Shown: piece by piece, positions 3,631 through 50,410 of the stretch | How positions within the stretch are numbered: the stretch's first letter is position 1 | Layout: the number at the start of each line of letters is the position of its first letter | DNA from: Prunus persica | Taxonomy: Eukaryota; Streptophyta; Magnoliopsida; Rosales; Rosaceae | Reading direction: 5' to 3' | DNA length: 64,000 nt | Assembly: GCF_000346465.2 (NCBI RefSeq) | Contig: NC_034010.1 | Span: forward strand, 13,674,482-13,738,481 | The notes under the pieces: generated by a model | Told to the model about the DNA's origin: nothing | What the model saw: only the letters and a program-made list of their open reading frames with translations | Database searches by the model: none | Position numbers and translations under genes: made by a program

Positions 3631-5904
3631 CCTTGAAATAAAACAAACTACAACATCTTTAAATAAAACAAACTACAACAATATTCTAGAAATAATCATT
3701 TTCTGGGGGTTGGGGATGATAGACTTCATCCTCGAAGTCTAGCGAATGAGAAGAACTCTACGCAATAATATCGACTTGTGTTTGCAGGCAATGGTCAAAT
3801 TTTTCAAAAAGTTTTAAAAATTGGTGAGCAAGTATATCAAAATGCACGAGTATGATATTGTTGAGTTGCAAGGCAAGTGAGGGACACAACAGTTGGGCTG
3901 TCAGCTTTTTCTCCATGCGGGCTCCATTGAGTTTCAGGGGCTTCAACCAAGCACACACATTTGGGTTTAGGTCTAGTTGGGCTCAACCTTTTTAAAGCCT
4001 TACAGCATTGAATCATTCCTCAATCAATTTCTCGCAAATTGAAACACTCACTAGATTAAACTTCAAAAGATGAAAGTTTGATTTGAAAGATATTCTCGGA
4101 ATGAATGATATCGATTTTGATCTCATTCATGATTATATTTAATTCAAGCTAGCTGTTTTGTTTATGTATCTTGTAGTATGACTCCAAAATCTTAGGAAAA
4201 AAGACGCATTTGGCATTTAAAATGTGCCACTCGTGTTAACTTATCACGCATGGAATTCTAGTGTAACACCCCGACTCCAAATTAAATGTTTATTTTAATC
4301 GATTTAAATAAAATTACGAATTTACCCTTGGGGGTAGGGGTAAATTGGTCACTTTCTTCTTCGGAAGGATTTTGGGACCACGAATGGTATTTCTAGGTAG
4401 ATGGTACTGAGACGAATTCGTAGACATGAGGTAGGCTTGAATCGGAGTTGTAACGGGAAAGTTACGGGCAAAATAGTATCAGTGGCAAAACTGTAAATAA
4501 TTCAAAAAGGGATAGAGTAAAAATCAGATTTTCACCTCAGTCTCTCTCTCTCCTGTCACGCGCTCGACACTCTCTCTCTCCTCAGTCTCTCTCTCTCCCC
4601 GACGTCCGCTCTCTCTCTCCTCAGTTCTCTCAGCTCCGGCCACGGCAGGACCCGAGACCGGTCCCGATCGACTCGCCTCGCCGCCTCGATCAAGACCTGC
4701 TCGTTTTCCCCGTCGAAAACTATGAAATCCGGCCTCGAGCTCGACGGTTTTGAACCGGAGCTTTCACGCCGTCGCGCCGCCGCCTCCGCCGCCCAAACCC
4801 GGTGAGTGAGGTATGGTTTCTCATCCATTTTTCGAGTTCTAGCTGATGGTGGTATAGGTTTGGATTGATTTGTTGGGTAGGAATTGATTTTGAAAACCTA
4901 GATTTTGGCCGAATTTCAAAATGAAATTCCGGCCAGTTGCCGCCCGAATTGGGCCTTCCCGTAGTTGAATGAAGTGATCCTGACCTCGAGTAGAAGCTAG
5001 GGTAGGAAGGGTGAGCTCGGGTGTGGAGTTTTTCCGTCGTCGGAATTACTCTACACACCCACGTGCTGCCGGCGCGTGTGGCGGCGCGTGGGCGAGGCTG
5101 GTGAGGCTGTAAATTAACCCGATAAGATCCTTAGGTTGTCACGAGCGCATAGGAATTCGCAGATCTCAATTCGGATGTCGTTTGACTATCGAACGGATTT
5201 TCGCATATTGTGCGTTATCCGGGTTCGATAGGTTCCGACCGTTAGATCTTTCCCGAATTAAAATATGTTGTTCTAGGTATTCCTAGGACCGTATGGGACT
5301 TCACGAATTCTGAATCGGAGCCCCGAATGTTCCGATTCAATAATGCAAAGTTTGCGGTAAGCGATAACCGTAAAATCGTGAACGATTCCTAAACCTGTAA
5401 TCGGACCTTAGGATACGTTCTGCAACGTGCACGTATGGGGAATTTGGGGATTTAAGCATTTAATTTGTGATTTCCGCTTTGACGTAATTTTATATTAATT
5501 ATCGGTTCGTATCTCGAAATAGGTGTTTCGACTGCACGTACGCAGCAAGCAGGACCCTCACGTGGTCAGGCAGCGAGGGAATACTTGTGAGTGGACTTTG
5601 TTTTCAATCATATGTATGGTTTTAATTGATGAAAGTTTTTGCATAATGTTTTAATGGCTTATGGATATATATATATATATATTATGTTCATGAGTTGAGT
5701 TTGATGGTCGTATAGCACTTGGCAATATATTGTGAGTTTGGCATTTTGGGTTTTTGAGAGTGCATTCTATATGGATTGTGGGAAAGTATATTTATATAAT
5801 CTCTATAGATGAGATACTTGGGTTGTTAGAGGGTGATGTGGAAGAATGTGATTTTGGAGAGAAGTTGTGTGATTACACTACGTAAGTACCTTCCCCAGTT
5901 ACTA

Positions 5905-6140
5905 GTCTCACTCGCGGCGTTGGATGTTCCGGCATGTGAGACACTTTCCATATGCGGCGTTGGATGTTCCGGCATGTGAGACACTTTCCATATGCGGCGT
6001 TGGATGTTCCGGCGTATGGAAAGACTCTGTATAATGTTTAGGGTCATCACCATGGCGTTGGATGTTCCGGTGTGTGATGACCCAGTCTGCGCGCGTAGGA
6101 CATAGTTTGGAAGCTACACATGGTGTTGGATGTTCCGGTG
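5905..6140 (+). repeat. Series of hairpins with one conserved loop sequence
   Basis: The 16-17-bp core GCGTTGGATGTTCCGG occurs four times exactly and once with one change (starts about 5915, 5955, 5995, 6054, 6122). The first copies are spaced by exactly 40 bp. Each core is enclosed by a different inverted repeat: GTCTCAC/GTGAGAC, CATATGC/GCATGTG, CTTTCCATATGC/GCGTATGGAAAG, GGGTCATCAC/GTGATGACCC and AAGCT/AGCTT. Stems differ while the loop stays constant. It lies in the variable part of the LTR, where the sister LTR has a 21-bp tandem repeat instead. Confidence 0.75.
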
Positions 6141-6959
6141 TGGGAGCTTTGGAGTTTCGTCCCCTGGTTGGACCGCTCATCCCTAGACGCAGGATACACT
6201 ACTACAAAAAGTGAAAAAGACGACCAGCAAACAACGACGGTCTAAGTGAAAACCGTCGTGGTTTATAAAAAGACGACGGTTCTAAAAACACCGTCGTGTA
6301 ATACAACCTTAGACAACTAAAAAATGGAGTTTCAAATGGCTGTTCAAAAACAACGACGTACATAATTAAACAACCGACGTCTATTTGAAACAGATTTCCG
6401 CAGTGTAAAATCAATGCCAACAAAGAACGGCAGAAGTTATGAATCGACCGACGTAGAAAGTAAAGACGACGATTTCAATAAAAACTGCCGTTTTTACTCA
6501 TAAAATAACACGACGAGGTTTTCGTATAAGACGCCGTATAATTACAAACAAATCCACGGCTTTAAAATACAAAATATCGCCGTATTAAATTAATTTACAA
6601 CGACGAAAAATATAAATATATCGACGTCATTCTCGTATAGTTCTACGACGTTATCTTTAAATCGTACAATAAAATTTAACGTCGTATTTATTCATTTTAT
6701 ACGTCGTACCTTTAATTTTAACGGTCGTCTTAATAAGAATTTTTGTTAACAATTTTTTTCTTTGATTTTCTTATCCTACGTCAGTAGATCTACTTAATGA
6801 CAAGAATTGAAATAACCACGACGGTTTATATAGAACACCGCCGACATAATCAGATTTGTCTGAGATCCCAAGGGTTACGAAATCTTACCAGATGGAACTC
6901 TGTTCCACATCATAATCTTAACAGATGACACAGATTTGCAAATATTGCGTCGTGTTAGT

Positions 6960-8480
6960 TTACAAATTCTAGAACATTAATTTCCCTCATTTTAAATTTC
7001 CTCGGGAAAGAAAAATCTATTTATCACGCTTTGGAATTGAAAACTAAAACTGAAAGAATACGGGAAAAAAAACTCTATTTATAATTTAAAATTAAAATCC
7101 ACGTCGGTTGTAGTACACTTAACGACGTTTAACAAAATAATCTACGTCGGTAATTATAAATCTACCGCCATCTTAACTTAATATAGACGACGAGAAAAGA
7201 CGACGGTAGAACAGAAAACCGCCGTTGTTTCAGTTTCTTTAACATATCTTTCTGCAGGACTTGTATAGTTCAAAGCATTGACAATGTCTTCATCATATCT
7301 CCCAGAAACTACTGATTCAATTGCTCATGCTTTAGAGGCCATCTGAAGCCATTTCTATTCTTTATCGCATTCTTGAAACCCATCTTCTTCTTCTGAAGCT
7401 CTACGGATAAAGGAAGAGGCTATCACAAATCCGACGGATCTTCTTAGGCAAGAAAATCAAGCAGAGGATCAGGCACATCTGATCTTCAGATTTCCCTGAG
7501 AAGCGAACTTTCCTTCGACAGCGAGTGGAGGCCAGGCTTGCATCTCTTTTGATGGAAAGCAAGGAGTATTCAGAAGCACTAAGTGTCCTATCAGGCTTGA
7601 TCAAGGAAGTGAGAAGGCTAGTTGACAAGCTTCTTCTTGTGGACATATATTTGATGCGAGTAAGCTCAATTTCTCTTTGAGAAAACATCCAAATTATTGT
7701 CTTTGAGACATGAGAGACTGAGAGAGGAAGAACTTGGAACCTTAAATGTAAACCGAAAATGAATGAAAGCGACAAATTTATAGAATAAATTTTTAAAACC
7801 AACGGCGGTCCTTACAAAAAAACCGCCGTTTAAATTGTAAAATCAACGTCGGTATGATCGACGTATATTACAGAAATCCACGTCGGTAAATTAATAAAAA
7901 CGACGTGTTAAATAATCTACCATGACGCGAGTTATTACTTATGTACTTTAATTTTTGAGTTTACTACGACGGTACCTACAAACTACTGTCGTATTTATTT
8001 ACTACGTCCGAAGTTAAATGTACCGTCGTATTTTGTAATTTATACGTCGTAGTTATATGTAACCGCCGTATTATTTTTTTGAAATGGTTTTATATGTAAG
8101 CAACTTTTCGTCTACTTGACTTACACATTTGTTGTTTTTATATTCTTATTTTATTTAAATCTGTCATCCAAAAAAGAAACTTTACATATTGCAGAATATT
8201 AATTTCCTTCGTTTTAAATTTCCTCCGGAAAAAAAACTCTATTTATAACGCACTGTAATTGAAAAATAAACTGAAAGGTCACGGGAAAAAATATTCTATT
8301 CATAATTTAAAAATTAAAATCCACGTCGGTTATATTAAACCTAACGACGTTAAATGAAATGATTCCACGTCGAACGAAAAATATTGCGTCGTGTTAGTTA
8401 AAAACGACGTAGTTAAATGTAACCGCCGTATTATTTTTTTGAAATGGTTTTATATGTAAGCAACTTTTCGACTTACACAT
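6960..8480. repeat. Internal direct repeats of the CACTA left arm
   Basis: The block TTTAAATTTCCTC...ACTCTATTTATAA...AAAATCCACGTCGG occurs at about 6985-7110 and again at about 8205-8335. A second block (AACCGCCGTATTATTTTTTT...GTAAGCAACTTTTCG) occurs at 8060-8110 and 8420-8470. Segmental duplication has lengthened the left arm around the captured gene pieces. Confidence 0.65.
7284..7685 (+). pseudogene. Captured fragment of 26S proteasome lid subunit RPN6 (PSMD11)
   Basis: The frame from ATG 7284 reads MSSSYLPETTDSIAHALEA, matching the known N terminus of plant RPN6 (26S proteasome non-ATPase regulatory subunit 11). After small frame changes it continues with ISILYRIL and SSSSEALRIKEEAIT. 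A second block (about 7497-7680) gives EKRTFLRQRVEARLASLLME, then KEVRRL and DKLLLVDI, the conserved segment near residues 130-185 of that family. The middle is deleted and the frame is broken, so it is not functional as a protein. It lies inside the CACTA element as a transduplicated host gene piece. The minus-strand ORF at 7401-7802 is its shadow. Confidence 0.85.
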
Positions 8481-8655
8481 GCACTGTTTCCAAACCCGAT
8501 TAAAAATTTCAATCTCCCAGAGAAACCTTTTCGTCTTTTTTCCTTGTCAGAGCATTGTCAGAGTTTCTCATCGTCTTCCTCTCGTCTTCTTCGTCGTCTC
8601 TGAACTTAAACATCGATCATCTTCCTCTTGCTTTCATTGCACGCAAAAGGTAAGC
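8465..8655 (+). other. Possible captured 5' leader exon with splice donor
   Basis: This stretch lacks the CGACGG repeats that fill the surrounding sequence. It is CT-rich (TCTTCCTCTCGTCTTCTTCG-like) and ends CAAAAG followed by GTAAGC, a good plant 5' splice donor. It resembles the 5' untranslated exon of a plant gene. It could be the promoter-proximal part of the captured B3 gene downstream, or the element's own transcript start. The ORF here has no domain. Confidence 0.35.
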
Positions 8656-9211
8656 TTTCATTTTCACTATTTTGGTTACTGTTTTGCATGCTCATACGTT
8701 TTTTGTTTGAAAAATCTTTTTACCTTTTTTCTGGCCAAAATCATTTTACTTCTTTCCAAGTTTGATAAAATATACAGACAAAGAGGGAAAGTTTCCAACT
8801 TTGAAGACAACTACCTCAACTAAATAAGACGACGGTAGACCACGACGGTTCGTCAGTTGTTCTAGCGTCGTCTGAAAATTGACAAAGTTGTTTTTAAAAT
8901 AATAGTCTTTTTTTATATGCTTGTTTAATTGCAGGTTTGATTTCTCTGAACAATGATTTTTGTTTTTCCCTTATTTGATAAAATATAAAGAAAAAGAAAC
9001 TAGGGTTGGTATCTAATATAGACGACAAAATATCTTATTGTTTTACGTCGTGTGAATGTTAATACCACGACGGTGTATTACTATTGACGTCGTATGGACA
9101 TAAATACCACGACGTTATATAAATAATAGTTTACCACGACGGTGTATTACTTCTTTCCAAGTCTGGGCCTTCCTTTGCTCAAACCAACATTGTAAAACTT
9201 ATCAATTCAGG

Positions 9212-9453
9212 CGTGGTTGGATGGACGTTGTGCGTGACAATCATTTGGAAGTTGGTGATCTGTGTCTTTTTGTGTTGATTTCCAGCAAAAGTACACCTTT
9301 ATTTGATCTTGTCATTTTCCGCTCTGGAGAAGGTGCAAAGTGCACCAATGATGGGGAGTAAATAGTACCTACGAAGGAAGAAACTGATAATGAAGATGGA
9401 GATTCGAGTGATGATTCTAGTAACGATTCGAGTTATATTAGGTTGTTTTGTTA
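9212..9453 (+). pseudogene. Captured B3-domain (REM-like) exon
   Basis: Directly after a splice-acceptor-like ATCAATTCAG the frame reads RGWMDVVRDNHLEVGDLCLF, then ISSKSTPLFDLVIFRSGEG. This is the C-terminal half of a plant B3 DNA-binding domain (GW..F...N.L..GD.C.F.L, then F.V.IFR). A TAA at 9359-9361 interrupts it, but the same frame continues with an acidic, serine-rich tail (DNEDGDSSDDSSNDSS) to a stop at 9451-9453. Repeat-free sequence to about 9725 could be its 3' UTR. It is a host-gene piece carried by the CACTA element; the N-terminal half of the domain is absent. Confidence 0.75.
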
Positions 9454-10024
9454 AAGGGTTTTATGTGTATGCTTTGCGATCTGTTAATAATGTGCTTATA
9501 GGTATGGGTTCATGGATTTTCTGTTTAATGGGTTCATGGATTACATTATCTGTTATGTTGAATTGGGAATGGATTTAATTTTGTCGTATCTTTTAATCAC
9601 CCTATGTTATGTTGAATTGGGAATGGATTTATTGTTTTCATGCTTGGTTTCATGTATATGTTGGTTTCTTGCTTGGTTTCATATATATGTTGTGTTCTTA
9701 ATGGGTTTTGTGTTCTTGAAAATAAACTGAGACACGATGAATTTTAAGGCGTACGACGACGATTACACGATGGTTTTTTTAAACTACCGTCGTTGTATTA
9801 CTTATACACGACGGTTTTTTCATAAACCGTCGTTTGTATTACTTATAATAGACGACGTCTGTTGAAAATCCGTCGTCTATATATGCCAAATACGTCTGTT
9901 TTTGTTTAAAACCCGTCGTCTCTGTTGTGTATTACTTGCGATTAGATCATTGTATAATCTGCTATAGTGATGGTCATTGCCTGTATTTTCACTTTATTAT
10001 AGATAATAGGTTATAGTGTCGGAG

Positions 10025-11686
10025 ATGGATAAGTCATGGATGCACTCGGATAGAAGATCGAAGGCATATGAATTTGGGGTGGAAGCATTTTTGAACTTTG
10101 CTGTAGAAAATCTTCTAACTACAGTACATATCCGTTGTCCATGTGTTAAATGTGTTAATTTGAAGTTGTTTGGGGTTGGAATTATAAGGGATCACTTATA
10201 CTTTAATGGAATTGACCAAAGCTATAAGAATTGGACATTTCACGGAGAACCTTGGGAAGCAACTACTAATGCTAGTAGAAATGTTGAAGAAGATGATGGC
10301 CATAGTAGGTACAGTTTTGTGTCTGAAGAAATTGATATGGATGATAATGATTTTGGTTCGGATCCGTATGAGTTTGCCAATGTGATTGGGGATGGAGATC
10401 AACCAGTGTACCCTGGTTGTAGAAAGTACACGAAGTTATCGGCATTAGTGAAGTTGTATAATTTGAAGGCAAAACATGGGATGAGTGATGTCTGTTTTAC
10501 AGAATTATTGATACTTCAAGGCGATTTGCTTCCAGAAGGAAATACAATACCAACATCCATGTATGAGGCTAAAAAGACTTTGTGTGCATTGGGGCTGAGT
10601 TATGAGAAAATGCACGCATGCCCCAATGATTGCATCTTGTATAGGAAGGAGTATGAGGATTCAACTAATTGTCCTACTTGTGGTATCTCAAGGTGGAAGG
10701 AAGGCAAAGATTCAATCTTGAAAGAGGGTGTGCCAGCGAAGGTGGTGTGGTATTTTCCCCCAATTCCAAGGTTTAAAAGGATGTTTCAATCACATGAGAC
10801 AGCTAAGAGTTTGACTTGGTGGCATGCTGCTAGAAAATCAATTGACGGTCAGATGTCTCATCCGGCGGATTCCCCGTCTTGGAAACTTCTTGATGATAAA
10901 TGGCCTGAGTTTGGTAATGAGCCGAGAAACTTGAGATTGGCTCTTTCATCTGATGGATTCAATCCCCACAGTTCTCTAAGTAGCAGATATAGTTGTTGGC
11001 CGGTTATCTTAGTTACATATAATCTCCCTCCATGGCTGTGCATGAAACGAAAGTTCATGATGTTAACCTTATTGATTTCCGGTCCTAAACAACCCGAAAA
11101 TGATATAGACGTCTACTTGGAGCCTTTGATTGATGATTTAAAATCCTTGTGGGTTGGGATTAGAGGAGTGTATGATGCACATAATGGAGAATACTTTACA
11201 CTCAGAGCTGCATTAATGTGGACAATTAATGATTTCCCCGCCTATGGAAACTTATCTGGTTGTGTTGTTAAAGGATATAAAGCTTGTCCAATATGCGGCG
11301 ATGATACACCTAGTCACAGGTTGAAAAATGGCCACAAAATTTGTTACATTGGGCATAGAAAATGGTTACCAATCAATCATCCATATAGGAGGCAACGTGC
11401 AGCTTTTAATGGGAAACCTGAATATGGCATACCTCCCGAGCCATTAACCGGAGAAGAAGTGCTGCATATGGTTGAAAATGGTGACAGAGTTTGTTGGAAG
11501 AAGAAATCAATATTCTTTGATCTCGAGTATTGGAAATACCTTCCTGTGAGGCATGCCCTAGATGTTATGCACATTGAGAAGAATGTTTGCGATAGTATCA
11601 TTGGTACATTGCTGGAGATCCCTGGAAAAAATAAAGATGGGATTGCTGCTCGATTAGATTTATTGAACATGGGGGGTCAAAACTGA
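10025..11686 (+). pseudogene. TNP2-like CACTA transposase, N-terminal and catalytic part
   Basis: Cuts and pastes CACTA elements through their subterminal repeats. MDKSWMHSDRRSKAYEFGVE starts the transposase-associated domain (about residues 1-75) with its CPCVKC motif. A linker with zinc-binding CPNDCILYR...CPTC follows. The Transposase_21 core contains DGFNPHSSLSSRYSCWPVIL, then the conserved DIDVYLEPLIDDL, then NDFPAYGNLSGC...KACPICGDD. ATG 10025 is preferred to the upstream GTG frame because family members begin MDKSWM. The frame is lost at a run of six G (about 11671-11676): the reading continues with family-like sequence in the next frame. The gene is therefore broken, or needs a frame change to make full protein. 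Confidence 0.85.
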
Positions 11687-11687
11687 T

Positions 11688-13367
11688 TTGCAACCCGAGT
11701 ATGGAGAAAGACGTACTCGTTTGCCTCCTGGGCCTTGGAATTTGTCAAGAGCAGAGAAGAGAGAGGTTTGCAATTCTTTCTATGGTATGAAGGTCCCTGA
11801 AGGTTATTCTTCAAATATTAAAAATCTTGTATCTTTACAAGATTCAAGACTTCTTGGCCTTAAATCACATGATTGTCATACCTTAATGCAACAATTGCTC
11901 CCTGTGGCAATTCGTTCTGTTTTGGAGAAGCCTGCAAGGTATGCAATAACTCGTTTGTGCTTCTTCTTCAATGCTATATGTGCAAAGACTGTTGATGTTT
12001 CCAAGCTAGATAAGTTGGAAGAAGATGTAGTAGTTACTCTGTGTTTGCTTGAGAAGTACTTTCCCCCTTCATTCTTTGATATCATGGTTCATCTAGTAGT
12101 ACATCTTGTCAGAGAAGTTCGTCTATGTGGGCCAGTATATTTTAGGTGGATGTATCCGTTTGAAAGATATATGAAAGTGCTGAAGGGGTATGTTCAGAAT
12201 CGTACTCGTCCCGAAGGTTGCATTGCTGAGCGGTATATAGCTGAAGAAGCGGTAGAGTGTTGTACTCAGCATTTATCTGATGTTAGTACAGTTGGAGTGC
12301 CTTCAAGCCAAAAGATGGGACTTTCAAAGCCATTATCAGGTTGCACAGTGAGCGTAGTTGATCAGGACCTGTTGAATCAAGCACATCTATATGTCTTGGA
12401 GAATACGGAGGAAGTCCTACCTTATATCGAGTACGTATGAGCTTTATTCTTTAAGTTTCCATTTTAAATTATTTCTTATGTTTATCTTCTATATTTAGGA
12501 CCGTAATGCTTGAATTTTTCGTGTCATGTAGGCAACATATGATTCACATCAAGACTGCTTATCCAAAATTTAGAAAGAGAACAAAGTGGCTGCAGGATAA
12601 GCACAATAGCACTTTCATTCAATGGCTACGCTTCAAGGTATATATTGTTGAATAACATATTTCTCTTTTAATTTTCTTCTTATTTATATGTTAGATTGAA
12701 TTAAGATATGATTAATTTGCAGGTTCAAAGTGAACTTGAGGAAGACAATCATGGCGTATCAGAAAATTTAAGGTGGCTAGCAGCTGGTCCAAACATGTCA
12801 GTGCCATTATATAGGAGCTATCTTATTCAAGGTATTAAATTCAATATCAAGGCACAAGATGATGTGCGGACAACTCAAAATAGTGGAGTTTATTTACTTG
12901 CACATACCATGCAAGTTGCTAGTGCCAAGGATAAAAACCCAATTCTCTCAAATATGGGTTTCTATGGTGTCATTCAAGAAATTTGGGACCTTGACTACCA
13001 AAAGTTTACAATCCCAGTCTTTAGGTGTGATTGGATTGATAGTTCTGGTCTTGTAGTCGACGAACTTGGATTTACCCTTGTAGATTTGAGTAAAATTGGA
13101 CATAGGAATGACCAATTTGTTTTGGCTTCTCAAGTCAAACAAATATTTTTTGTTGACGACCCGATGCATCGTGGTTGGTCGGTAGTGTTATCAATGCCTA
13201 ATAGAGAATATAATGATGTTATTGGTGATGAAGTCTTAGGTGATGTGATAATTGAGTGTGAGCCATTTACTAGAGGGATGCCAAATGTTGACACATTTGA
13301 TGAACTGGTGGGTGAGTTAGGCGGTCAAAATATTCGAGATGGGTGTGAAGATATATGGATTGAATGA
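11688..13367 (+). pseudogene. TNP2-like CACTA transposase, C-terminal part (DUF4218 and DUF4216)
   Basis: Continuation of the same gene after the G-run frameshift. Exon 11688-12430 holds the DUF4218-type region (LKSHDCHTLMQQLLPVAIR; GPVYFRWMYPFERYMKVLKG; RPEGCIAERY). The donor CGA|GTACGT at 12430 joins the acceptor ATGTAG at 12531, giving exon 12532-12637. A second intron, AAG|GTATAT to TTGCAG, leads to the last exon, 12723-13367, with the DUF4216-type region (VFRCDWIDS, then GFTLVDLSKIGH and QVKQIFFVDDP). Both splice junctions keep frame. This domain order is standard for plant CACTA TNP2 proteins. Confidence 0.8.
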
Positions 13368-13439
13368 TGCTTATGTAATTGGCAGTGTATGACATTAATT
13401 TTGTAACATATTGTAATGTGATTTCTTCACTTTCTACGT

Positions 13440-14880
13440 TCAAATAAAACACGACGTTATTGTGAACCAGTTATTCAGCATATTTACCGACGTCTTAAAG
13501 CAACGTAACAATGAAGAACCACGACGCAATTGTGAAGCAATTATTCAGGATATCACGTCGGGGAAGGATTAAGAACCGCCATGTAATTCAAAATAACACG
13601 ACTCCAATCCCATAATACCGACGTCTAAAAAACGAGATATATAATCTGAACGTTAAAAAATACGACGTCATCATACATTTTCCACGTCGCAAGTTCTTTT
13701 ATAAACGAAGAGGAACGAAATGAATTCCGACGGAAATTCATTATAACCGCCGTCTAATAACAATTAAACGACGTTATTTGTAATACGGCTCTCATCATAA
13801 TCAACGCCGTCTATATGTTCTGTAATACGGCTCTCATTTATTTGGAACCGACGTTGTTTAGAAGTTCAACGTCGTCTATATTATTAAGTGCGTCGTGAGT
13901 AATGATGATAGATTTAAATACAACGTCGACTATATAAATGCCACCGACGTTGTTTCGTATTTCAACGTCAACTGTATAAATACATACGTCGTAAATAATG
14001 ACACTGACAACTATTTCCACGTCATCTTTTTTAGAAAAATCGAAGTGGAAAATTTATTTCACGACGGTTGTTTGTAAATTAGAGACGTAGTATATTTCAA
14101 TAACGTCGTCTTCTCATGTATTTAAAGACGTCATATTTTTTCTTGTCGTGTAAATTATATTTTGCGGCCTTGTTCTTTTAACATGTGTCATATTTTTCCT
14201 TTTTAACGACGGTGATTTGTTTGAGTTGGTCGTCTATTCTCATCCTCGACTATTTTCTAGAACTTTAGCAGACTAAACACGTCTGTTTTTATTGTTTTCC
14301 GACGTTGTTTTATTTAACAACGTCTAATATTTATCGTCGTTGTTTGTTTCTGAAAATATGACGTATAAATTTTGTAATACGACTCTCATATATTTGTAAC
14401 CGACGTTGTTTCGTTTTTCAACGTCTACTCAATAAATACATACGTCGTAAATAATGACACTGACAACTATTTCCACGTCATCTTTTATCGAAAAATCGAA
14501 GTGGAAAATTAATTTTACGACGGCTGTTTTTATATATGCGACGTAGTAGGTATCAATAACGTCGTCTTCTAATGTATTTAAAGACGTCAAATTTTTTATT
14601 GTCGTGAAAATGATATTTAACGGCGTCGTTTTTTTTATTTTCGTCGTTGTATGTCTATCTTGCGGCCTTGTTCTCTTAATATGTGTCATATTTTTCCTTT
14701 TTAACGACGGTTTTTTTAGAGAGTTGGTCGTCTATTCTCATCCTCGACTGCTTTTTTAGATCTTTTTGCAGTACAAAGACGTCGTTTTGTATTTGTTGAT
14801 GACGTTGTATATTTTAACAACGACGGTGATTTAGCGTCGTGGTATATGAGGGAAAAGATGACGGTGGATTCCACGACCAT
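13440..14880. repeat. Right subterminal repeat arm of CACTA, partly duplicated
   Basis: Dense ACGTCG/ACGACG/CCGTCG motifs in both orientations, which are transposase-binding-type subterminal repeats. A block of about 300 bp is tandemly duplicated with a period of about 455 bp. It starts ACATACGTCGTAAATAATGA near 13980 and again near 14435, and ends TTGGTCGTCTATTCTCATCC near 14250 and 14750. Short ORFs here are incidental. Confidence 0.75.
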
Positions 14881-15677
14881 TGAAAAATCGAATACACCTG
14901 AAAATCCTGCGGACTAGTTAAACGATCCCCCAATTGGATTGTTTTCCCCGGTACCTAGGTGGTGTGATGAGTATATTGTATAGCTATTTATAGTTATATT
15001 TATATGTATAGGTATATTTATATGTATATGTATAGTTGAGTGTGTAAGGAATTAGTAGTTTGACAGGAGTTGTAAGATTGAGAGAATGTGATTCTTTTTG
15101 AAAGAGATAACTGGTGTTTTTAGAAGGGTTTTAATGAATCATGTTTTGAGTAATTAATTATTGAATTGTGAACCTGCATGACTTGAGCATTATTTTTACA
15201 TGGTGGGGTTACTATATTGTTTTTAACTGCAAATCTGGTTTTTGTCCACTCACATGTTTTCTGTTTTGCGCCCCCCAGCCAGTAGTCGCTCCAGGAAACA
15301 TGCGAGTGGTGTACGAAGCTCAAACTGTGCATCTTTCTAGTTAGGAACTGTGTAAATCCTTCTACTCAACTGTTCTTGTAATCTAAATTCAGTAGATGCT
15401 CTGTATTGCCCATGATAGATTTTACTTGTGAGGCCGGAGGCCACTTTAGTGACTTGTAGAATTGTGAAAGCATGCCGCTGGTTGGAATTATTATTGTGTG
15501 TTTGTTGCAGGTTGAGTAATTATTTTTATTGGAATTGCTTAAATTACAGGGGAGACTCTGCCAAAATTTTAGTAGAAAGTCTCGATTTCTTAGTAGGTGG
15601 ACCCGGCATCGGGATGATGTCAGAATAAAGACGGGGTCCGCTTCGGTCTTCTGGAAATTCCGCGGCGGGTCCTGTCA

Positions 15678-15752
15678 GTTTGGTATCAGAGCCACTCTGC
15701 CGTGTAGTGCGAGTGTGCCGACGAGGACGTCGGGCCCTTAAGGGGGGTGGAT
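15678..15752 (+). other. Primer-binding site, minimal internal domain and polypurine tract
   Basis: TGGTATCAGAGCC (15681-15693) is complementary to the 3' end of initiator tRNA-Met, the usual plant LTR-element primer. After about 45 bp comes AAGGGGGGTGGA (about 15741-15751), a polypurine tract immediately before the 3' LTR. This 75-bp internal region without protein genes is typical of TRIM elements such as Cassandra. Here the LTR upstream is not a Cassandra LTR. Confidence 0.8.
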
Positions 15753-16024
15753 TGTAAGATCCCACATCAACCAAACAGAGAGGGGGTGATGTGCCTTATA
15801 TGTGCACACCCGCATCCATCTAGCACGAGGCCTTTTGGGAGCTCACTGGCTTCGGAGTCGTAGGAACTCCGAAGTTAAGCGAGTTGGGGGCTAGAGCAAC
15901 CCCAGGATGGGTGACCCACTAGGAAGTTGCTCGTGAGCTACTAGAAACAAAACCGTGCGGGCAGAGAGGGGGGCCCAAAGCGGACAATATCGTGCTACGG
16001 CAGAGCCGATCCCGGGATGTGACA
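15753..16024 (+). repeat. Cassandra-type TRIM LTR
   Basis: A 272-bp LTR beginning TGTAAGATCCCACATCA and ending GGGATGTGACA, the arrangement of Cassandra LTRs, whose defining feature is an internal 5S-rRNA-like block, present here. It serves as the 3' LTR of the composite element and is followed directly by the TCTAG target duplication. No second Cassandra LTR lies upstream of the primer-binding site. Confidence 0.85.
15822..15939 (+). other. 5S-rRNA-like sequence inside the Cassandra LTR
   Basis: About 118 bp resembling plant 5S rRNA. It contains GAACTCCGAAGTTAAGCG (A-box region) and AGGATGGGTGACC (C-box region) in the right order and spacing, with AGGAAGTTGCTCGTG near the end as in the 5S 3' part. 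These are the internal RNA polymerase III promoter elements. The flanks diverge from true 5S genes, so it is a retroelement component and not a 5S gene. Confidence 0.85.
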
Positions 16025-16389
16025 TCTAGTAAAGAATATAATAAAGCTAACTAAGAAACGGAACGAAGATGAATTGGAGCGAAAAAAGGTTGAGGCGCAG
16101 CGAAGACGTCGACTTTATGGAAGACCCATAAAGAAGTACACGGCTACAAAGGACAGTCTCAAGATTGCTGTAAAGCTCGGTGTATGCGCTTACGGGAAGG
16201 ACGAAACATCAATAAGCTACTTCGATACAAGAATCTCCTAATGCAGTATGTGAAACCTATGCCCTATTTTGAATCACCTGTTGAGATTTTCGATACCACC
16301 ACTAGCAGGAAGATAGTGGTACTTGACCCATTCCCTACTAGAGAGATCAACACTTTTATGACAACGCTTTGTGACAAGGAGGGAGCTAA

Positions 16390-19210: not shown

Positions 19211-22150
19211 ACACCTATAATTTAGTTGGTTTTATGTAGTTTGTCCTAAAAGTTACTTGGTATGGTCAATTGTGATGCTTAATTATCTTAATTAATTATT
19301 CGTATATAAAGGTAAGTAAAGTAAAATAGTAGATATTGCTTAATGGGCTACAAGACCCATGACTTGTATTGCCACATTTGTCATGGTGAATAACCATACG
19401 TCCACCACTTGTGCCGATCGTCTGGGCATATCTTGGTCTTTTTGAATTCACTTTCTACTTCCGGGACCATCCTTGACTCAATCGAAACCATAAAGTTTTG
19501 AACAAATACCCACTTCGACCACTACTTTGGGTGGCTAAGGTCACCCATAAAACCCCTCATGCATTTAGGACATTGTTGAGTTAATCTTAAACTATTTGTT
19601 GGTTACAGGAAGCTTGGTTATGCTTGAATGACTAGGTGCCCACTTCAGGGCAAGACGTGGTACTCTTTCGGTACGAGATCATTCTTCGACGCGTTCTAGT
19701 CAAGGCTCCGAAGACCATGTTTGATGTTCCACTCTTAAGAAAAAAAAGTTTTTTTTTTCATCAACTTGTGTGCCATTTTATGCCTTTAATGAGTATCGTT
19801 CTCATTGCTAAATAATGGAGGATGAGAATGCTTGGGATGTAAGTTATCAAACATGGACTTGGGGAGTACAATCACAAAATATATTTTATTTATAAAAAAG
19901 TGTTCGCCCTGAGTCATTCATTAGGGCAAACTAATAGTCGTTTGATAAAAACGAAGGAAAGAGAGAATAGAACTTAGAACTTCGGTGCAAAGATAAATTT
20001 TCTTAATAATTTGAGTTATAAACCTCTTACATGAATTTAAATCTCAAATAGAAAAACATAAAATAAAAAATTGAGCCTTGATTTTTTAAAGGAAAATGGT
20101 AAATGTTGGAGGCTACACTTATCAACTTTTTCTCCCCAATGTCCGTTTCCCAACCTAAGTGGCAATTAATAAGAAGAGTGTCTCATTTTAAAAATAACCG
20201 TGTTGTAGTTTAAATTGGGCCAATATGGTCTAACTCAGTGAAAAAGAGCATTGACTTGTGAACTAGTGGTGCGTTAGTAGTGTGTATGTGAGAAGTTTCC
20301 TCCCTTTTTATTTATTTATATTTTTTATATTTACACACTTTGATAGCTCTCCTTTTTGTGAAAGCTTTGTTCTTGAACGTTGGGTTGGCGTTTTCAAGCC
20401 TAGATTTGTTATTGCTAGGTTGTTTTTTTCGGGGGCTTCTAGCCCCGTAGTGAATTTTTTTCCTTCATATTGTAGAACCTAGTGTGATAGTGCTTTTGGT
20501 TGGGAAAAAAATTTTGAAAAAAAAAAGTTTATAAGTGTAGCTAGCTTCCTTGATTCCATCCACATCTCATCGTTATGATTTTCTTCAAGCTTACAAGGCA
20601 ACGAGTATGGATTGACACAATTTATAAATAAATAAATAAAAAAGCCCCCCTTTATGATCAAGATAGACACTCTGCCAATAAACGCAGCAACCATGCTCTG
20701 CATTTTGACCAAGAAAAAAGAAAAAAAGAAACCATGTAGGCTGCATGCCAATATAGGTGCATGGTGTGTGATGCTTGCCATGAAATTGGCATGATCAATC
20801 TCATCTGCTACACTCGTTTGTCATGACTCATGTGGAACCTTTTAGGAGTGATTTGCAATAAACAAAAATTAAAAAAATTAAAAACAAAAGCACATTTTCC
20901 TTAATTATAATATTAATCTCGCTTGTGCACATACACATATACTTTGATTTATATAAGAATTTATGTAAAAAAAGTAAATCTTTTACTAATAAAATTTTCA
21001 ATGATATTGCATTTAATGATATCACAATCAGGTCATTTTAGAAGTCAAATTATGCATTTAAGATTTATGTGAAATCATTCATTGCAAGACTTTTGTCAAA
21101 ATAATAAGAGATATCTGGTCATATACCTATTCTTAGCACTAATAATATAGATATATTTTACACCATTTAATTTCTATAAACAAACCCAAAAAATGACATC
21201 TGGCCTTATTAAATTTAATTTTAATTATTAAATTACTTTGATGACCTATTGAGTGTTTTGGGTATTTTTACGAGGTTTTGGTGTTGGGTTTGTTTTAAAA
21301 AATTGATGACAGTTTTATAATTTATAAGAAATTAAAAGCCACCTTGTTATTGTAAATAGGCTTTGGGTATGTTTTTAAAATTCATTTCATATAGGGTTAT
21401 ATATATAAAATTTGAGCCCCTATATTGGGTATAATAGTGAATCTCCCAATTAATAAATGCATATTATGTCATGCGATTTGCAAAATCAATATATGAAGCT
21501 CCATGGAAGGTTTCAAGAAGTCATTGACATGTTTACTAATTCATAATTGGAATCAAAATAAGGAGTTGAATTCCTATTACGGATACTCCTATGTTTATTT
21601 CACGTGGAAGAATCAAAATGCGAGTGTTACTCAAATAAAATCAGGAACTCTTGGGTGAGAGAGGTAGTATTCTAAATCCTAGAGAACTAACCCATTAGGA
21701 ATTCATATTTTTTACCCATTATATCCTCACACAATTTTAAAATTTTAAAATTTTCCATCTACTTGAACCGAACAAAGAGGGTAGTTTAGTAATCAATTTG
21801 GTTTCAATTCCAATTCTTGTGAATTTAGTAAACAACTTATAAGGAATTAATATTACTCCTACTCCAATTCTATATAGTAAAATAAACAACTTCAGAATAA
21901 ATCCGAAATCTAAACTTTCCTCAATCCAATCCAATCAGATTAGTATGTAATCCAAAAAAAAGAAGGAAGAAGCTATATGTAAGTTATGAAACAGGAAATA
22001 AGGAAAAACAAACGGGAAAGAAGCAAATCTTTTTTCTCCATCAGGAAAAGGAAAAAAAAAAGTTAGTCTTTCTGGTAGGAGTAATAAATGCAGTCAATTA
22101 CCAGGAAGCTACAGTGAACTTTCTTCCCTCCTTCCTGAATTTGAAGCGAC
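19211..22150. other. AT-rich intergenic region, no gene recognised
   Basis: Short ORFs only. The stretch 19370-19730 is less AT-rich than its surroundings but gives no recognisable protein. From 20000 onward the sequence is homopolymer-rich. The last few hundred bases form the promoter of the Ca2+-ATPase gene. Confidence 0.5.
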
Positions 22151-22157
22151 CGTCCTG

Positions 22158-22166
22158 TATATATAT
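22158..22166 (+). promoter_or_regulatory. Likely TATA box of the Ca2+-ATPase gene
   Basis: TATATATAT lies 133 bp upstream of the chosen ATG, in a TC-rich context typical of a plant core promoter and leader. Position and composition fit; there is no other support. Confidence 0.5.
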
Positions 22167-22290
22167 CCTATACGAATTCTCTCTTCCTCGAATATTAACA
22201 CTCATTAAACCCTTTGTTTTTTGGCTAAACTTTAGTTTGCTTTCCTGTTTATTGATCTTCATCAACTCGCAGTTTTCCTTGTCCATTGCC

Positions 22291-25200
22291 ATGTCTCGGA
22301 GGTCACGAAAACCCGCTGAACAGGCTTTTAATGCTGAAGACCATGCACCAACAGAACCGAAAACGCACAAGCAGAGGTGGCGGTTGGCCTTGACGGTCAT
22401 ATCCTTCACCAGGGCTCTTAATACACTTGCCAAGAAAGTAATTTATGACAAGGGCCAAGTACCTCGATCCATCTCTTACATATCCATTGATGTACCCAGC
22501 AACGAAGACGATAGTGCAGGCAAAAGCAGTCGTTCTTTGCTTGATCTTGATCAGAAGGCGCTTACTGATATGGTGAAGGACAAGAACCTTGATCTTTTGA
22601 GTCAATTTGGAGGAGTTAAAGATTTGGCTTCTACTCTTGGAACTGATGTGAAGGGGGGAATTGGCGGGGGAGAGGCTGATTTGATGCATAGGAAAGATGT
22701 TTTTGGAGCCAATGTGTTTCAGAAGCCGCCTGCAAAACGCTTCATGAGTTTTTTCATTGAAGCATTCAAGGACACAACCATCATAATACTTCTGGTATGT
22801 GCTATACTCTCTCTAGGGTTTGGAATTCAAAAGCATGGCTTGAAAAACGGTTGGTATGATGGTGGTAGCATTGTTCTTGCTGTCTTGTTAGTCGTTATTG
22901 TCACTGCTGTCTCGAACTTCAAGCAGTCGAGGCAATTTGATAAGCTTTCGACCAAGAGTAGTGACATAAGTGTTGAAATTGTGAGAGCTGGACAACGCCG
23001 TCCCATATCAATATTTGATATTGTGGTGGGTGATCTTGTTTGCCTGAAGATTGGGGATCAGGTTCCGGCAGATGGGGTGTTTATGGAAGGGCATTCATTG
23101 AAGGTGGACGAATCCAGCATGACAGGGGAAAGCGAACACATTGAGATCAATAGTGGAAACCATCCCTTTCTGTTATCTGGCACAAAGGTGACAGATGGGT
23201 TTGGTTTGATGCTTGTCACTTCTGTGGGCATGAACACAGCCTGGGGCGAGATGATGAGCTCAATAAGTCGGGATTTAGATGAGCAGACACCTTTACAGGC
23301 ACGGCTTGACAAGCTTACATCTTATATTGGGAAGGTTGGTTTGGCAGTGGCTGTGCTTGTTCTTGCGGTTTCGCTGATTCGTTATTTCACCGGACACACC
23401 ACAGATGACAAGGGGAACAGAGAATTCTATGGAGGCAAGACAAAGTTCGATGATGTAGTGAATTCTGCTCTGGATATTTTAGCTGCAGCAATCACAATTG
23501 TTGTTGTGGCGATTCCTGAAGGTTTGCCTCTGGCCGTTACCTTGACTCTTGCGTATTCAATGAAGAAGATGATGAATGACAACGCCTTGGTTCGAAGGCT
23601 CTCTGCATGTGAGACGATGGGATCAGCCACAACCATCTGCACTGACAAAACAGGCACTCTTACCATGAATGAGATGAAGGTTACAGAGTTTTGGCTTGGT
23701 CCAGAAGCAATGACAGAAGAGAATCAGTCAGAGATAACACAACCCATTCTGCAATTACTCCATCAGGCTGTAGGCTTAAACACAACTGGCAGTGTTTGTA
23801 TGCCGAATTCTTCATCCGTCCCTGAGATTTCTGGTAGCCCAACTGAGAAAGCAATACTTTCTTGGGCTGTGTTTGATTTGGGAATGAATTCTGAAGAAGT
23901 GAAACAAGGCTGTCAGATAATCCATGTTGAAACTTTCAATTCGGAGAAAAAGAGAAGCGGTGTTTTGATGAGGAGGAACGGTGAAAAGGCAACTGAAACC
24001 CACTGGAAAGGAGCAGCTGAGATGATACTGGCCTTGTGCTCAAATTATTATGACAAGACTGGAAAAGTGAGAGCCATCAGTGATGAAGAAAGATTGCATG
24101 TTGAGTCAATTATTCAGAACATGGCAGCCAAAAGCTTGCGGTGCATTGCCTTTGCTCATAAAATTTCTGAAGAAGAGAATGGCAGTCAGGGTCATGAGAA
24201 GCTTGAAGAAAGTGGGCTGACATTGTTGGGTCTTGTGGGTTTGAAGGATCCGTGCAGACCTGGAGTTCGAACAGCAGTAGACGCTTGCAGAGCTGCTGGA
24301 GTGAAAATTAAGATGATAACCGGTGACAATGTGCATACTGCAAAAGCTATAGCTGTTGAATGTGGGATACTGAAACCAGAGGAGGATCTGGAGGATGATG
24401 CAGTTGTAGAAGGTGTCCAATTTCGAAATTACTCACCTGAAGAGACAATGGAAAGGATCGATAAGATTCGCGTGATGGCAAGATCGTCACCATTTGATAA
24501 GCTAAAGATGGTACAGTACTTGAAGCAGAAAGGCCATGTGGTTGCAGTGACGGGAGATGGCACGAATGATGCACCTGCCCTAAAGGAAGCAGATATTGGG
24601 CTTTCAATGGGGATCCAAGGCACTGAAGTTGCAAAGGAGAGCTCAGACATTGTGATCTTAGATGATAACTTCACTTCTGTGGTGACTGTTCTGCGATGGG
24701 GCAGGTGTGTTTATAACAATATTCAAAAGTTCCTTCAGTTCCAGCTCACAGTAAATGTTGCTGCCCTTGTGATCAACTTTGTTGCCGCTGTTTCGTCTGG
24801 CAAAGTTCCACTGACTGCTGTCCAGTTGCTGTGGGTGAACCTTATAATGGATACATTGGGGGCTTTAGCTTTGGCCACTGAACAACCAACCAACGAACTC
24901 ATGGACAAGAAACCAGTGGGTCGAACGGAGCCACTCATAACCAGAGTCATGTGGAGAAACCTCTTATCTCAGGCTTTGTATCAGATCACCATCTTGCTGA
25001 CTCTACAGTTTAAGGGAAGATCCATCTTTGGCGTGGATGAGAAGGCCAAGAATACCCTTATCTTCAACACTTTTGTTTTTTGCCAAGTCTTCAATGAGTT
25101 CAATTCCAGGAACATGGAGAAGAAGAACATATTCAAGGGGTTACTCAAGAACAAGTTGTTCTTAGCAATAATTGGCATCACTGCAGTTCTTCAAATAGTG

Positions 25201-25332
25201 ATGGTTGAACTTCTGACGAAGTTTGCAAGTACTAAGAGGCTGAATTGGGGGCAATGGGGTGCTTGCATTGGGATTGCAGCGATGTCTTGGCCGATTGGTT
25301 GGCTTGTTAAGTACATTCCTGTTTCTGGATAG
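22291..25332 (+). CDS. Autoinhibited plasma-membrane-type Ca2+-ATPase (ACA12/13-like), single exon
   Basis: P-type IIB calmodulin-regulated Ca2+ pump that exports cytosolic Ca2+ using ATP. It has 1013 residues with no intron, as in Arabidopsis ACA12/ACA13 (established knowledge). The frame opens at 22114, but MSRRSRKPAEQAF at 22291 is preferred: the upstream 59 codons are leader-like and hydrophobic. The N-terminal autoinhibitory, calmodulin-binding-type helix is KQRWRLALTVISFTRALNTL. Motifs: TGES at 278, PEGLP in TM4 (about 408-412), phosphorylated Asp in DKTGTLT at 452, KGA at 573, hinge GDGTNDAP at 755. Ten membrane segments are visible; TM6 carries NLIMDTLGALALATE. The frame is intact with all catalytic residues present. 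Plasma membrane against endomembrane cannot be decided from sequence. Confidence 0.95.
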   Translation: MSRRSRKPAEQAFNAEDHAPTEPKTHKQRWRLALTVISFTRALNTLAKKVIYDKGQVPRSISYISIDVPSNEDDSAGKSSRSLLDLDQKALTDMVKDKNLDLLSQFGGVKDLASTLGTDVKGGIGGGEADLMHRKDVFGANVFQKPPAKRFMSFFIEAFKDTTIIILLVCAILSLGFGIQKHGLKNGWYDGGSIVLAVLLVVIVTAVSNFKQSRQFDKLSTKSSDISVEIVRAGQRRPISIFDIVVGDLVCLKIGDQVPADGVFMEGHSLKVDESSMTGESEHIEINSGNHPFLLSGTKVTDGFGLMLVTSVGMNTAWGEMMSSISRDLDEQTPLQARLDKLTSYIGKVGLAVAVLVLAVSLIRYFTGHTTDDKGNREFYGGKTKFDDVVNSALDILAAAITIVVVAIPEGLPLAVTLTLAYSMKKMMNDNALVRRLSACETMGSATTICTDKTGTLTMNEMKVTEFWLGPEAMTEENQSEITQPILQLLHQAVGLNTTGSVCMPNSSSVPEISGSPTEKAILSWAVFDLGMNSEEVKQGCQIIHVETFNSEKKRSGVLMRRNGEKATETHWKGAAEMILALCSNYYDKTGKVRAISDEERLHVESIIQNMAAKSLRCIAFAHKISEEENGSQGHEKLEESGLTLLGLVGLKDPCRPGVRTAVDACRAAGVKIKMITGDNVHTAKAIAVECGILKPEEDLEDDAVVEGVQFRNYSPEETMERIDKIRVMARSSPFDKLKMVQYLKQKGHVVAVTGDGTNDAPALKEADIGLSMGIQGTEVAKESSDIVILDDNFTSVVTVLRWGRCVYNNIQKFLQFQLTVNVAALVINFVAAVSSGKVPLTAVQLLWVNLIMDTLGALALATEQPTNELMDKKPVGRTEPLITRVMWRNLLSQALYQITILLTLQFKGRSIFGVDEKAKNTLIFNTFVFCQVFNEFNSRNMEKKNIFKGLLKNKLFLAIIGITAVLQIVMVELLTKFASTKRLNWGQWGACIGIAAMSWPIGWLVKYIPVSG

Positions 25333-44246: not shown

Positions 44247-44492
44247 TATTGGAAGTATAGCTTGGTGGCTGCTAGCTGTGATTGATTTAGGGGATTTCCT
44301 TGATTTAGGGGATTTCCTTAATTTAGGGGATTTGATCTGGTTGCTTGTAATTATAGTTTTCCTATAATTAGGGGTTAAAGTCAAGGTGGTGGTCCCTAGC
44401 TTATACATATATACGTGTGTAATCCTGTAAACTAAAACATAATGAGAAAACATATTCTCCACATCATCATATTCTCTCCATCATTTTCCACA
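44247..44492 (+). repeat. 5' LTR of the Copia element
   Basis: 246 bp, containing three 18-bp tandem units (GATTTAGGGGATTTCCTT). It ends TTTTCCACA and is followed immediately by the primer-binding site TGGTATCAGAGC at 44493-44504, complementary to initiator tRNA-Met. Confidence 0.92.
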
Positions 44493-44566
44493 TGGTATCA
44501 GAGCAGGAACCTTAACCGGCCTGTCTCCATTTTTACCTTTCTTTCTTCTGTACATGCTATTCAATA

Positions 44567-45742
44567 ATGGCAGAAGATAATCCTTTTGGCTCTGAAGCTA
44601 AAAGCTTCACAGTACCTCCTTCTAGTTTTCCAGAAGCTGAAGTCAACCCAAACCAGCGACTGTGCTCTGTGTTGTTAAATGAGTTTAACTATCTTCCATG
44701 GTCTAGAGCAGTAACTCTTGCCCTTGGAGGAAGATCCAAACTCGGATTTGTTAATGGAACCATTGAGGCACCTGAAGATTCGTCTCCAGAGTATGAAGCA
44801 TGGCTGTGCAAAGACCAACTGGTCATGTCGTGGCTCCTTAACTCCATGGATACTAAGCTGTCTGAAATCTTCAGTTTTTCAGAATCCTCTCTTTCTCTTT
44901 GGAAGGCAGTCAAAGATATGTATGGCAATCAAAACAATGCAGCTCGAGTGTTCCAACTTAAGAGGAATCTTGCAAGTCTCCAACAAGGTGATAAATCCTC
45001 TGTTCATCATCTCGGTTGTATGAAAAATATGTGGAACGAACTAAATATGTATCGACCACATACTATCGATGCTGCCATACTGTTAAAGAGGTCTGAGGAA
45101 GACAAAATTTTTCATTTGCTTGCAAGTTTGGGGTCTGAATATGAAGATCTTAGAAGCCATATTCTAATGAACCCCGAACTTCCATCATTTGCAAGTGTTT
45201 GCACTACTATCCAGCGAGAAGAAGTATGTAGGAAAGTCATGAATGTTGACATCAAATCTAGTGTGTCTGAGGCTAGAGCGTTTGTGACAAACCACAAGTC
45301 ATCTGGAGATAGAGTGTACAAGGGAAAAAGGCCAGATCTGAAGTGCTTACACTGCAATAATATTGGACATCTAATAGATCGATGCTGGATATTACACCCT
45401 GAGTTGAAGCCAAAGTTTGAGAACAAGCCTTCAAGAGACTACAAGGGCTCACAAACCAGATCACATACAAACAAAAACCATGCTACTGCTGCTGCTACAT
45501 CAATTGATGGGCTGACAAACTTCATAGCCAATCCGGCTAACTTGATAAATGAATTCTCTGCCTATCTTCAAACCAAAAAAGGAAGCACAGGCGAAGCATT
45601 GACTGCTGGAAATCAAACTGCTCTCCTTGGGCAGTTTGCAGGACTCTTAGCTGAGTCTAATCGTGTACCTCAAGGAGATGTTCCAGGTATTATGTGTGCT
45701 CTTTCAACTGCTCTAAATGTTAGTCATTCTCATGATTTTTGA
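44567..45742 (+). CDS. Copia Gag protein, stand-alone ORF
   Basis: 391 residues starting MAEDNPFGSEAKSFTVPP. The N-terminal gag-polypeptide region includes NEFNYLPWSRAVTLALGGRS and the UBN2-type segment LWKAVKDMYG...VFQLKRNLASLQQG. A CCHC zinc knuckle is CLHCNNIGHLIDRC. It forms the capsid of the virus-like particle. In the second copy the frame passes into protease through a TGG codon; here the corresponding codon is TGA, so Gag ends just before protease. Sequence after the stop joins a truncated LTR within about 15 bp. Confidence 0.88.
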   Translation: MAEDNPFGSEAKSFTVPPSSFPEAEVNPNQRLCSVLLNEFNYLPWSRAVTLALGGRSKLGFVNGTIEAPEDSSPEYEAWLCKDQLVMSWLLNSMDTKLSEIFSFSESSLSLWKAVKDMYGNQNNAARVFQLKRNLASLQQGDKSSVHHLGCMKNMWNELNMYRPHTIDAAILLKRSEEDKIFHLLASLGSEYEDLRSHILMNPELPSFASVCTTIQREEVCRKVMNVDIKSSVSEARAFVTNHKSSGDRVYKGKRPDLKCLHCNNIGHLIDRCWILHPELKPKFENKPSRDYKGSQTRSHTNKNHATAAATSIDGLTNFIANPANLINEFSAYLQTKKGSTGEALTAGNQTALLGQFAGLLAESNRVPQGDVPGIMCALSTALNVSHSHDF

Positions 45743-45755
45743 ATTATAGACTCAG

Positions 45756-50403: not shown

Positions 50404-50410
50404 GGGGGAG

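What the first reader, a model, noticed from the sequence alone, without database searches (positions are those of the whole stretch)
4262..16024. Retroelement with two unrelated LTRs inserted as one unit
The left LTR is a long-LTR family member (sister: 57239-59282), while the PBS-to-3'-LTR part is Cassandra. The junction falls exactly at the shared initiator-tRNA primer site. Perfect TCTAG duplications at 4257-4261 and 16025-16029 argue that the hybrid DNA integrated once. Two unrelated insertions recombined later would normally carry different duplications. The simplest inference is template switching between co-packaged RNAs at the PBS, followed by integration of cDNA with non-identical ends. 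That would imply one integrase tolerated both LTR tips, and would suggest which autonomous family mobilises Cassandra.
Basis: partly seen in the sequence, partly recalled or inferred. Interest (0 to 1): 0.9.

Follow-up and report, generated by a model that had tools for sequence, protein, structure and literature searches.

The report
Hybrid retrotransposon with two different LTRs
A jumping element in a plant genome was built from two unrelated parents, a large gypsy-type element and the tiny 5S-carrying element Cassandra, joined at their common priming site and inserted as one piece, which hints at which large element moves Cassandra.

Summary
Confirmed and extended. At 4262-16024 a 2.7-kb gypsy-type LTR (later split by a CACTA transposon) is joined at the initiator-tRNA primer site to the internal part and 3' LTR of Cassandra, between TCTAG repeats. 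The flanks belong to a repeat family: all 17 other copies read are continuous across the insertion point, 15 with one exact TCTAG. The hybrid therefore entered as one unit. It is not unique: at least nine loci in this genome join an LTR of this superfamily to Cassandra at the same site. Two have the form Cassandra LTR-PBS-gypsy internal-gypsy LTR-PBS-Cassandra, each inside a perfect 5-bp duplication. Best mechanism: plus-strand DNA of the gypsy element, ending in LTR plus PBS, transferred in trans to Cassandra minus-strand DNA in a shared particle. An RNA-RNA switch alone cannot supply the gypsy U3. One copy of the LTR family read has gag, protease, RT, RNase H and integrase-type domains and nearly the same PBS, PPT and U3 tip as Cassandra, whose autonomous partner was called unknown in 2020. 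New variant of known template-switch insertions; the partnership is inferred, not shown.

The parts
4257..4261 (.). left target-site duplication TCTAG
   Evidence: single exact copy in 15 of 17 empty paralogous sites read
4262..6193 (+). gypsy-type LTR (family A), first part, tip TGTAACACCCC
   Evidence: many genomic relatives
6194..6196 (.). ATA, left 3-bp duplication of the CACTA insertion
6197..14891 (+). CACTA DNA transposon inserted later in the LTR (CACTACTACAAAAA 5' end; tnp2 transposase ORF 10010-11683; DUF4218 and DUF4216 ORFs)
   Evidence: 3' terminal repeat not recognisable
14892..14894 (.). ATA, right 3-bp duplication of the CACTA insertion
14895..15677 (+). gypsy-type LTR (family A), second part, ending GGGTCCTGTCA
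15678..15680 (+). spacer GTT (A native GCT; Cassandra usually ATT, GTT at two Cassandra loci)
15681..15692 (+). primer binding site TGGTATCAGAGC shared by both parents; the junction lies here or in the spacer
   Evidence: identity with the initiator-tRNA complement is recalled
15693..15752 (+). Cassandra internal domain, polypurine tract AAGGGGGG at 15740-15747
15753..16024 (+). Cassandra LTR (272 bp)
15864..15935 (+). 5S rRNA-like stretch in the Cassandra LTR (5S positions 41-110)
   Evidence: score 38 against at most 15 in 500 shuffles; Rfam gave no 5S match
16025..16029 (.). right target-site duplication TCTAG

Best explanation
RNAs of a family-A gypsy element and of Cassandra were reverse transcribed in one particle. 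Plus-strand DNA of A (U3-R-U5 plus a copy of the PBS) annealed through the 12-nt PBS to the 3' end of Cassandra minus-strand DNA instead of its own, and both strands were completed. The product, A LTR-PBS-Cassandra internal-Cassandra LTR, was integrated once, making TCTAG. A CACTA transposon later split the A LTR. The same transfer in the other order, or twice in succession, gives the Cassandra-gypsy-Cassandra composites elsewhere. Shown: anatomy, junction site, recurrence, single-unit insertion. Inferred: particle sharing, strand chemistry, which integrase acted.
For: Empty site: 17 of 17 paralogous copies read are continuous, 15 with exact TCTAG. Nine loci with gypsy-type LTR::PBS::Cassandra: the window, C1:39138653-, C2:17429288-, C6:19351931+, C1:16301547-, C1:13975788+, C6:16000069+, C4:17818406+, C1:33134797-. 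Two composites with the Cassandra LTR at both ends and perfect duplications: C6 (GCTGA, LTRs 280/281 identical) and C1 near 13.97 Mb (TTATC); a scrambled third has ACTTG. The spacer between LTR and PBS matches the gypsy (A or A') type at 5 of 9 junctions, as expected if LTR plus PBS moved together. Screen not selected for gypsy LTRs: of 100 listed Cassandra PBS motifs (of 202 exact), 96 have a Cassandra LTR end upstream and 4 a gypsy-type one, none another LTR. A motif joining the window's copia LTR end, which has the same PBS, to Cassandra gave 0 matches. PPT and U3 tip: AAGGGGGGTGGAT|TGTAAGATCCC in Cassandra, AAGGGGGGTAGAT|TGTAACACCCC in A. In Ty3, dead-end plus-strand strong-stop DNA accumulates in particles (PMC5371799, passages).
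Against: The spacer of the window's own junction is GTT, one change from A's GCT but identical to a Cassandra variant at two loci read, so its exact crossover is unresolved. h2 and L085 have Cassandra-like spacers; L084 is ambiguous; one of three reciprocal junctions (L083) has the recipient's spacer. Native spacers were read for five A copies and one A' copy only, not for every donor subfamily. Only the window combines different LTRs at its two ends with a perfect duplication; L085 has 4 of 5 (chance of 4 or more about 0.019), h6 is unclear, h2 has only a 4-bp AAGA at its outer flanks. In Ty1 and Ty3 the PBS is reported not to be copied from the tRNA (PMC5371799, passages), so the textbook plus-strand step may differ in detail. 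No particle, RNA or cDNA evidence exists here.
Confidence: 0.77

Rival explanations
1. Minus-strand or RNA-level template switch at the PBS between co-packaged RNAs, completed by a further switch.
For: Also needs co-packaging and gives a PBS junction; template switching between co-packaged RNAs is described for retroviruses and proposed for cereal elements (PMC3187697 passages; PMC1950507 whole text).
Against: RNA lacks U3 5' of R, so a complete LTR upstream of the PBS needs an extra, precise second event; plus-strand transfer gives it in one step.
Confidence: 0.12
2. Post-integration recombination or gene conversion replaced the 5' LTR of an ordinary Cassandra by a gypsy LTR.
For: Recombination between neighbouring elements is held to be the usual source of complex elements (PMC1950507). 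The head-to-head pair at C1:39138653 could be a PBS-to-PBS inversion.
Against: Shared sequence is 12-13 nt at the PBS and 5 nt (TGTAA) at the outer tip, yet the swap would have to be exact at both, and similar events would have to recur at many loci with several gypsy subfamilies.
Confidence: 0.06
3. Single-LTR circles of gypsy DNA recombined into the PBS of integrated Cassandra copies, giving the Cassandra-ended composites.
For: Gives exactly Cassandra LTR-PBS-gypsy internal-gypsy LTR-PBS-Cassandra with Cassandra's own duplication.
Against: Cannot make the window element, whose outer 5' end next to TCTAG is the gypsy LTR tip.
Confidence: 0.04
4. Assembly join or chance neighbourhood.
For: One of the nine loci (h6) lies beside a run of N.
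Against: No N in the window; nine loci with one junction type; empty-site copies.
Confidence: 0.01

Closest known systems
Template-switching complex LTR insertions of Triticeae, rice and maize (Sabot and Schulman 2007, PMC1950507, whole text read)
   Same: complex element with a shared internal LTR, single integration shown by 5-bp duplications, co-packaged templates invoked
   Different: those are same-family, three-LTR elements with highly similar outer LTRs and a proposed switch at R; the paper argues that identical ends let one integrase use them. Here the parents are unrelated, the junction is the PBS, and the window element has different ends
Cassandra TRIM tandem arrays (Kalendar 2020, PMC7215508, abstract and passages read)
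   Same: Cassandra LTRs and internal domains joined in arrays, with template switching during reverse transcription named as one possible origin; arrays also occur here (L005, L019, L025, L080)
   Different: homotypic arrays; here a gypsy LTR or a whole gypsy unit takes one place in the array
LTR-retrotransposon tandems (Morales-Diaz 2025, PMC11899658, abstract and Discussion read)
   Same: single insertion of LTR-internal-LTR-internal-LTR
   Different: tandems of LTR copies sharing LTRs; heterotypic or mixed-end elements are not described in the parts read
Recombinant Onsen copies (PMC5668417, abstract in part and passages read)
   Same: recombination between members during transposition bursts, seen also in extrachromosomal DNA
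   Different: within one family

Membership tests
Cassandra TRIM | 5S rRNA-like sequence with pol III promoter region in the LTR | tested here: met
Cassandra TRIM | short LTRs (about 270 bp), tiny non-coding internal domain, met-tRNA PBS, PPT | tested here: met
   272-bp LTR and 75-bp internal domain with relatives throughout the genome; 202 exact PBS-internal motifs; tRNA identity of the PBS recalled
Cassandra TRIM | two like LTRs | tested here: not met
   the 5' LTR is gypsy-type; so the window element is a hybrid, not a Cassandra copy
Ty3/gypsy element of family A | gag, protease, RT, RNase H and integrase in the order PR-RT-RH-IN | tested here: met
   for one relative, L065, four of its six longer frames searched: Retrotrans_gag, RVP_2, RVT_1, RT_RNaseH, Integrase_H2C2, SH3_Tf2-1 (order). 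Frames are interrupted and the integrase core model was not matched. The window element has none of these
Ty3/gypsy chromovirus | chromodomain after integrase | tested here: inconclusive
   Chromo 20.7 bits, below the 25.1 cut-off
Template-switch complex insertion (Sabot and Schulman) | flanking target-site duplication, single integration | tested here: met
   TCTAG and 17 of 17 continuous empty sites read
Template-switch complex insertion (Sabot and Schulman) | highly similar outer LTRs and a third, internal LTR | tested here: not met
   the window has two unlike LTRs; e63 has like outer LTRs (280/281) and an internal gypsy LTR, L083 the same form with outer LTRs 91.5% identical

The most novel reading that the evidence does not exclude
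Plus-strand transfer in trans at the PBS is a recurrent route that makes heterotypic retroelements, including mixed-end elements that annotation tools based on LTR pairs would be expected to miss. It also generates Cassandra tandem arrays. The gypsy families that supply the donor LTRs are Cassandra's helpers in this lineage.
Probability: 0.5. Interest if true: 0.85.

Novelty: new variant of a known kind. Interest (0 to 1): 0.74.

Why it matters
Cassandra is described as widespread in plants, yet its autonomous partners were still called unknown in 2020 (PMC7215508, passages), and a survey of 289 TRIM subfamilies found no retrotransposase-encoding relative for 278 (PMC4717578, passage). Hybrid insertions are physical records of two templates sharing one reverse-transcription reaction, so they name candidate partners without sequence kinship. 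They also imply that an integrase accepted two unlike LTR ends, and that mixed-end elements may be under-counted.

Tried and rejected
Inversion at C1:39138653: the head-to-head pair of reciprocal hybrids, joined by AT, could be a PBS-to-PBS inversion of two neighbouring elements. LTR pairs of equal divergence (97.7% and 97.4%) and the AT that precedes the Cassandra U3 also fit joining of two cDNAs; left open.

A nested-insertion reading of the Cassandra-ended composites was rejected because the gypsy unit lacks its own 5' LTR and meets Cassandra at the PBS. L012, by contrast, is an ordinary nested insertion of Cassandra in an A' element, with AAGGA on both sides.

Empty sites for e63: the joined flanks match many copies of a repeat across the join (for example C2:15460662-15460773, 94%, query 4-114, join at 56-60), but their letters were not read.

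One search also listed C6:17636303, which proved to be a gypsy-type LTR on a gypsy internal, not Cassandra.

The second half of the 202 exact Cassandra motifs was not listed by the tool, so nine loci is a lower bound. The copia control used one copia LTR end only, copy number unknown.

Literature: the listings of searches showed no title or abstract start on gypsy-Cassandra hybrids. A 2021 paper on Cassandra reshuffling in sugar beet (recalled) is not held and might describe similar forms.
Full report
Observation. The window lies in a 227.5-Mb assembly, G000:C2:13674482-13738481; the size and the chromosome-sized contigs seen (C1 to C8) resemble peach, which is my inference. The finding's coordinates hold. 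A long LTR begins at 4262 directly after TCTAG, is split by a CACTA transposon, and ends at 15677. Then come a 3-nt spacer, the PBS TGGTATCAGAGC, the short Cassandra internal domain with its PPT, and one Cassandra LTR ending at 16024 before a second TCTAG. The Cassandra LTR carries a 5S-like stretch, which Rfam did not report.

Parents. Ordinary Cassandra copies mostly have the form LTR-ATT-PBS-CACTCTG. Of 26 fetched ordinary loci scored, 19 have perfect 5-bp duplications and 4 match at 4 of 5; L030 was skipped, and L001, L031, L002 and L006 (hybrids) were excluded. The long LTR belongs to a high-copy family, A. At five of five fetched 5' LTRs with an exact PBS the form is LTR-GCT-PBS-ATTAGG. 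One copy, L065, encodes gag, protease, RT, RNase H and integrase zinc-binding and C-terminal domains in interrupted frames, with a chromodomain match below cut-off. A diverged relative, A', has an internal region of only about 1.07 kb, interrupted in all three frames translated, so it is probably non-autonomous.

One insertion. The two flanks, joined at one TCTAG, hit a dispersed repeat. Letters of 16 copies reaching the join were fetched and one more was in L033. All 17 are continuous across the join; 15 read TCTAG, one TATAG, one TCTAA. Of the other five matches, two are the window's own flanks and three were not read. The hybrid therefore sits where a single event with a 5-bp duplication placed it.

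Recurrence. Pattern searches found gypsy-type LTR ends joined to Cassandra, and a screen of Cassandra motifs found the same type. Of 100 listed places (of 202 exact), 83 follow an exact Cassandra LTR end and 17 do not. Of these 17, five lie in loci already fetched (h1, h2, h6, and Cassandra-preceded places in L006 and L019) and twelve were fetched. In all, 13 have a Cassandra-like end and 4 a gypsy-type end, L080 being the new one. In total nine loci carry the junction: h1 (window), h2, h6, e63, L080, L083, L084, L085, L103. Four LTRs were compared: h1 against the A' types 56-59%, the A' types 88-92% among themselves. A mixed-LTR RNA would lack matching R regions and could not copy itself normally, so most are probably separate events; that is inference.

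Forms. e63 at C6:19348306-19352304 reads GCTGA-Cassandra LTR-ATT-PBS-A' internal-PPT-A' LTR-PBS-Cassandra internal-Cassandra LTR-GCTGA, with the outer LTRs 280/281 identical. L083 has the same form with another gypsy subfamily and TTATC on both sides; its outer LTRs are 91.5% identical. L084 is a scrambled version inside ACTTG. h2 is a head-to-head pair of reciprocal hybrids; its outer flanks share AAGA, 4 bp, not 5. L080 has a gypsy LTR followed by a Cassandra array; its 5' end and outer duplication were not found. L085 resembles the window element, with CAAAA and CATAA. h6 has ATATC at the left and again 12 nt beyond a damaged Cassandra end. L103 is a degenerate case, probably old, read only near its junction.

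Mechanism. The nine junctions fall between the LTR end and the end of the 12-nt PBS. In the window the upstream part is a complete LTR, which RNA cannot supply, because the U3 is absent from the 5' end of the transcript. Plus-strand strong-stop DNA has exactly this content, and its normal landing place is the PBS complement on minus-strand DNA (PMC3187697, passages). Landing on Cassandra minus-strand DNA gives the window element; landing of Cassandra plus-strand DNA on gypsy minus-strand DNA, followed by a second transfer, gives e63 and L083. Spacers match the gypsy type at 5 of 9 junctions (L080, L083, L103, e63, h6), are Cassandra-like at two (h2, L085), and ambiguous at two (the window and L084); of three reciprocal junctions two carry the donor's spacer. 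The window's GTT also occurs at two ordinary Cassandra loci (L072, L078), so its crossover cannot be placed to the base. In Ty1 and Ty3 the PBS is reported not to be copied from the tRNA (PMC5371799, passages), so the detail of the plus-strand step is open.

Partner. Cassandra and A share the PBS, nearly the same PPT and the same first five LTR bases. In the screen every non-Cassandra LTR was of the A superfamily (4 of 4), and a copia LTR end with the same PBS gave no hybrid. This makes the A superfamily the leading candidate for Cassandra's helper here. Similar PBS and PPT are, from general knowledge, common among gypsy elements, so the cis signals alone are weak evidence.

Known context. Complex insertions by template switching were proposed in 2007 for same-family elements with like outer LTRs (PMC1950507, whole text). 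Cassandra arrays and LTR tandems are known (PMC7215508; PMC11899658). The searches listed in Tried and rejected showed, in titles and abstract starts, no description of PBS-joined gypsy-Cassandra hybrids or of a mixed-end element with an empty-site proof; most subscription papers are not held. I class it as a new variant of a known kind.

Noticed in passing
44247-50656: A copia element with three LTR-like copies (44247-44492, about 45759-45942, 50411-50656) and two PBS (44493, 45953), a likely same-family complex insertion; 44282-45755 repeats 45759-47215 at 97%.
   Followed up: partly
C1:39136826-39145300 (L002, L061, L066, L079): Head-to-head pair of reciprocal Cassandra-gypsy hybrids joined by AT, each LTR pair about 97.5% identical.
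   Followed up: partly
L005, L019, L025, L080: Cassandra arrays with three or more LTRs; L025 has one perfect outer duplication CGATC, perhaps the homotypic product of the same transfer.
   Followed up: partly
57239-59282: Probable solo LTR distantly related to family A, flanked by GAAAA and GAAAC.
   Followed up: no
21901-25329: Long open frame (1143 aa) for a P-type cation ATPase.
   Followed up: no
52623-54619 and 61644-63695: 2-kb direct duplication, 88% identical, containing internal repeats.
   Followed up: no
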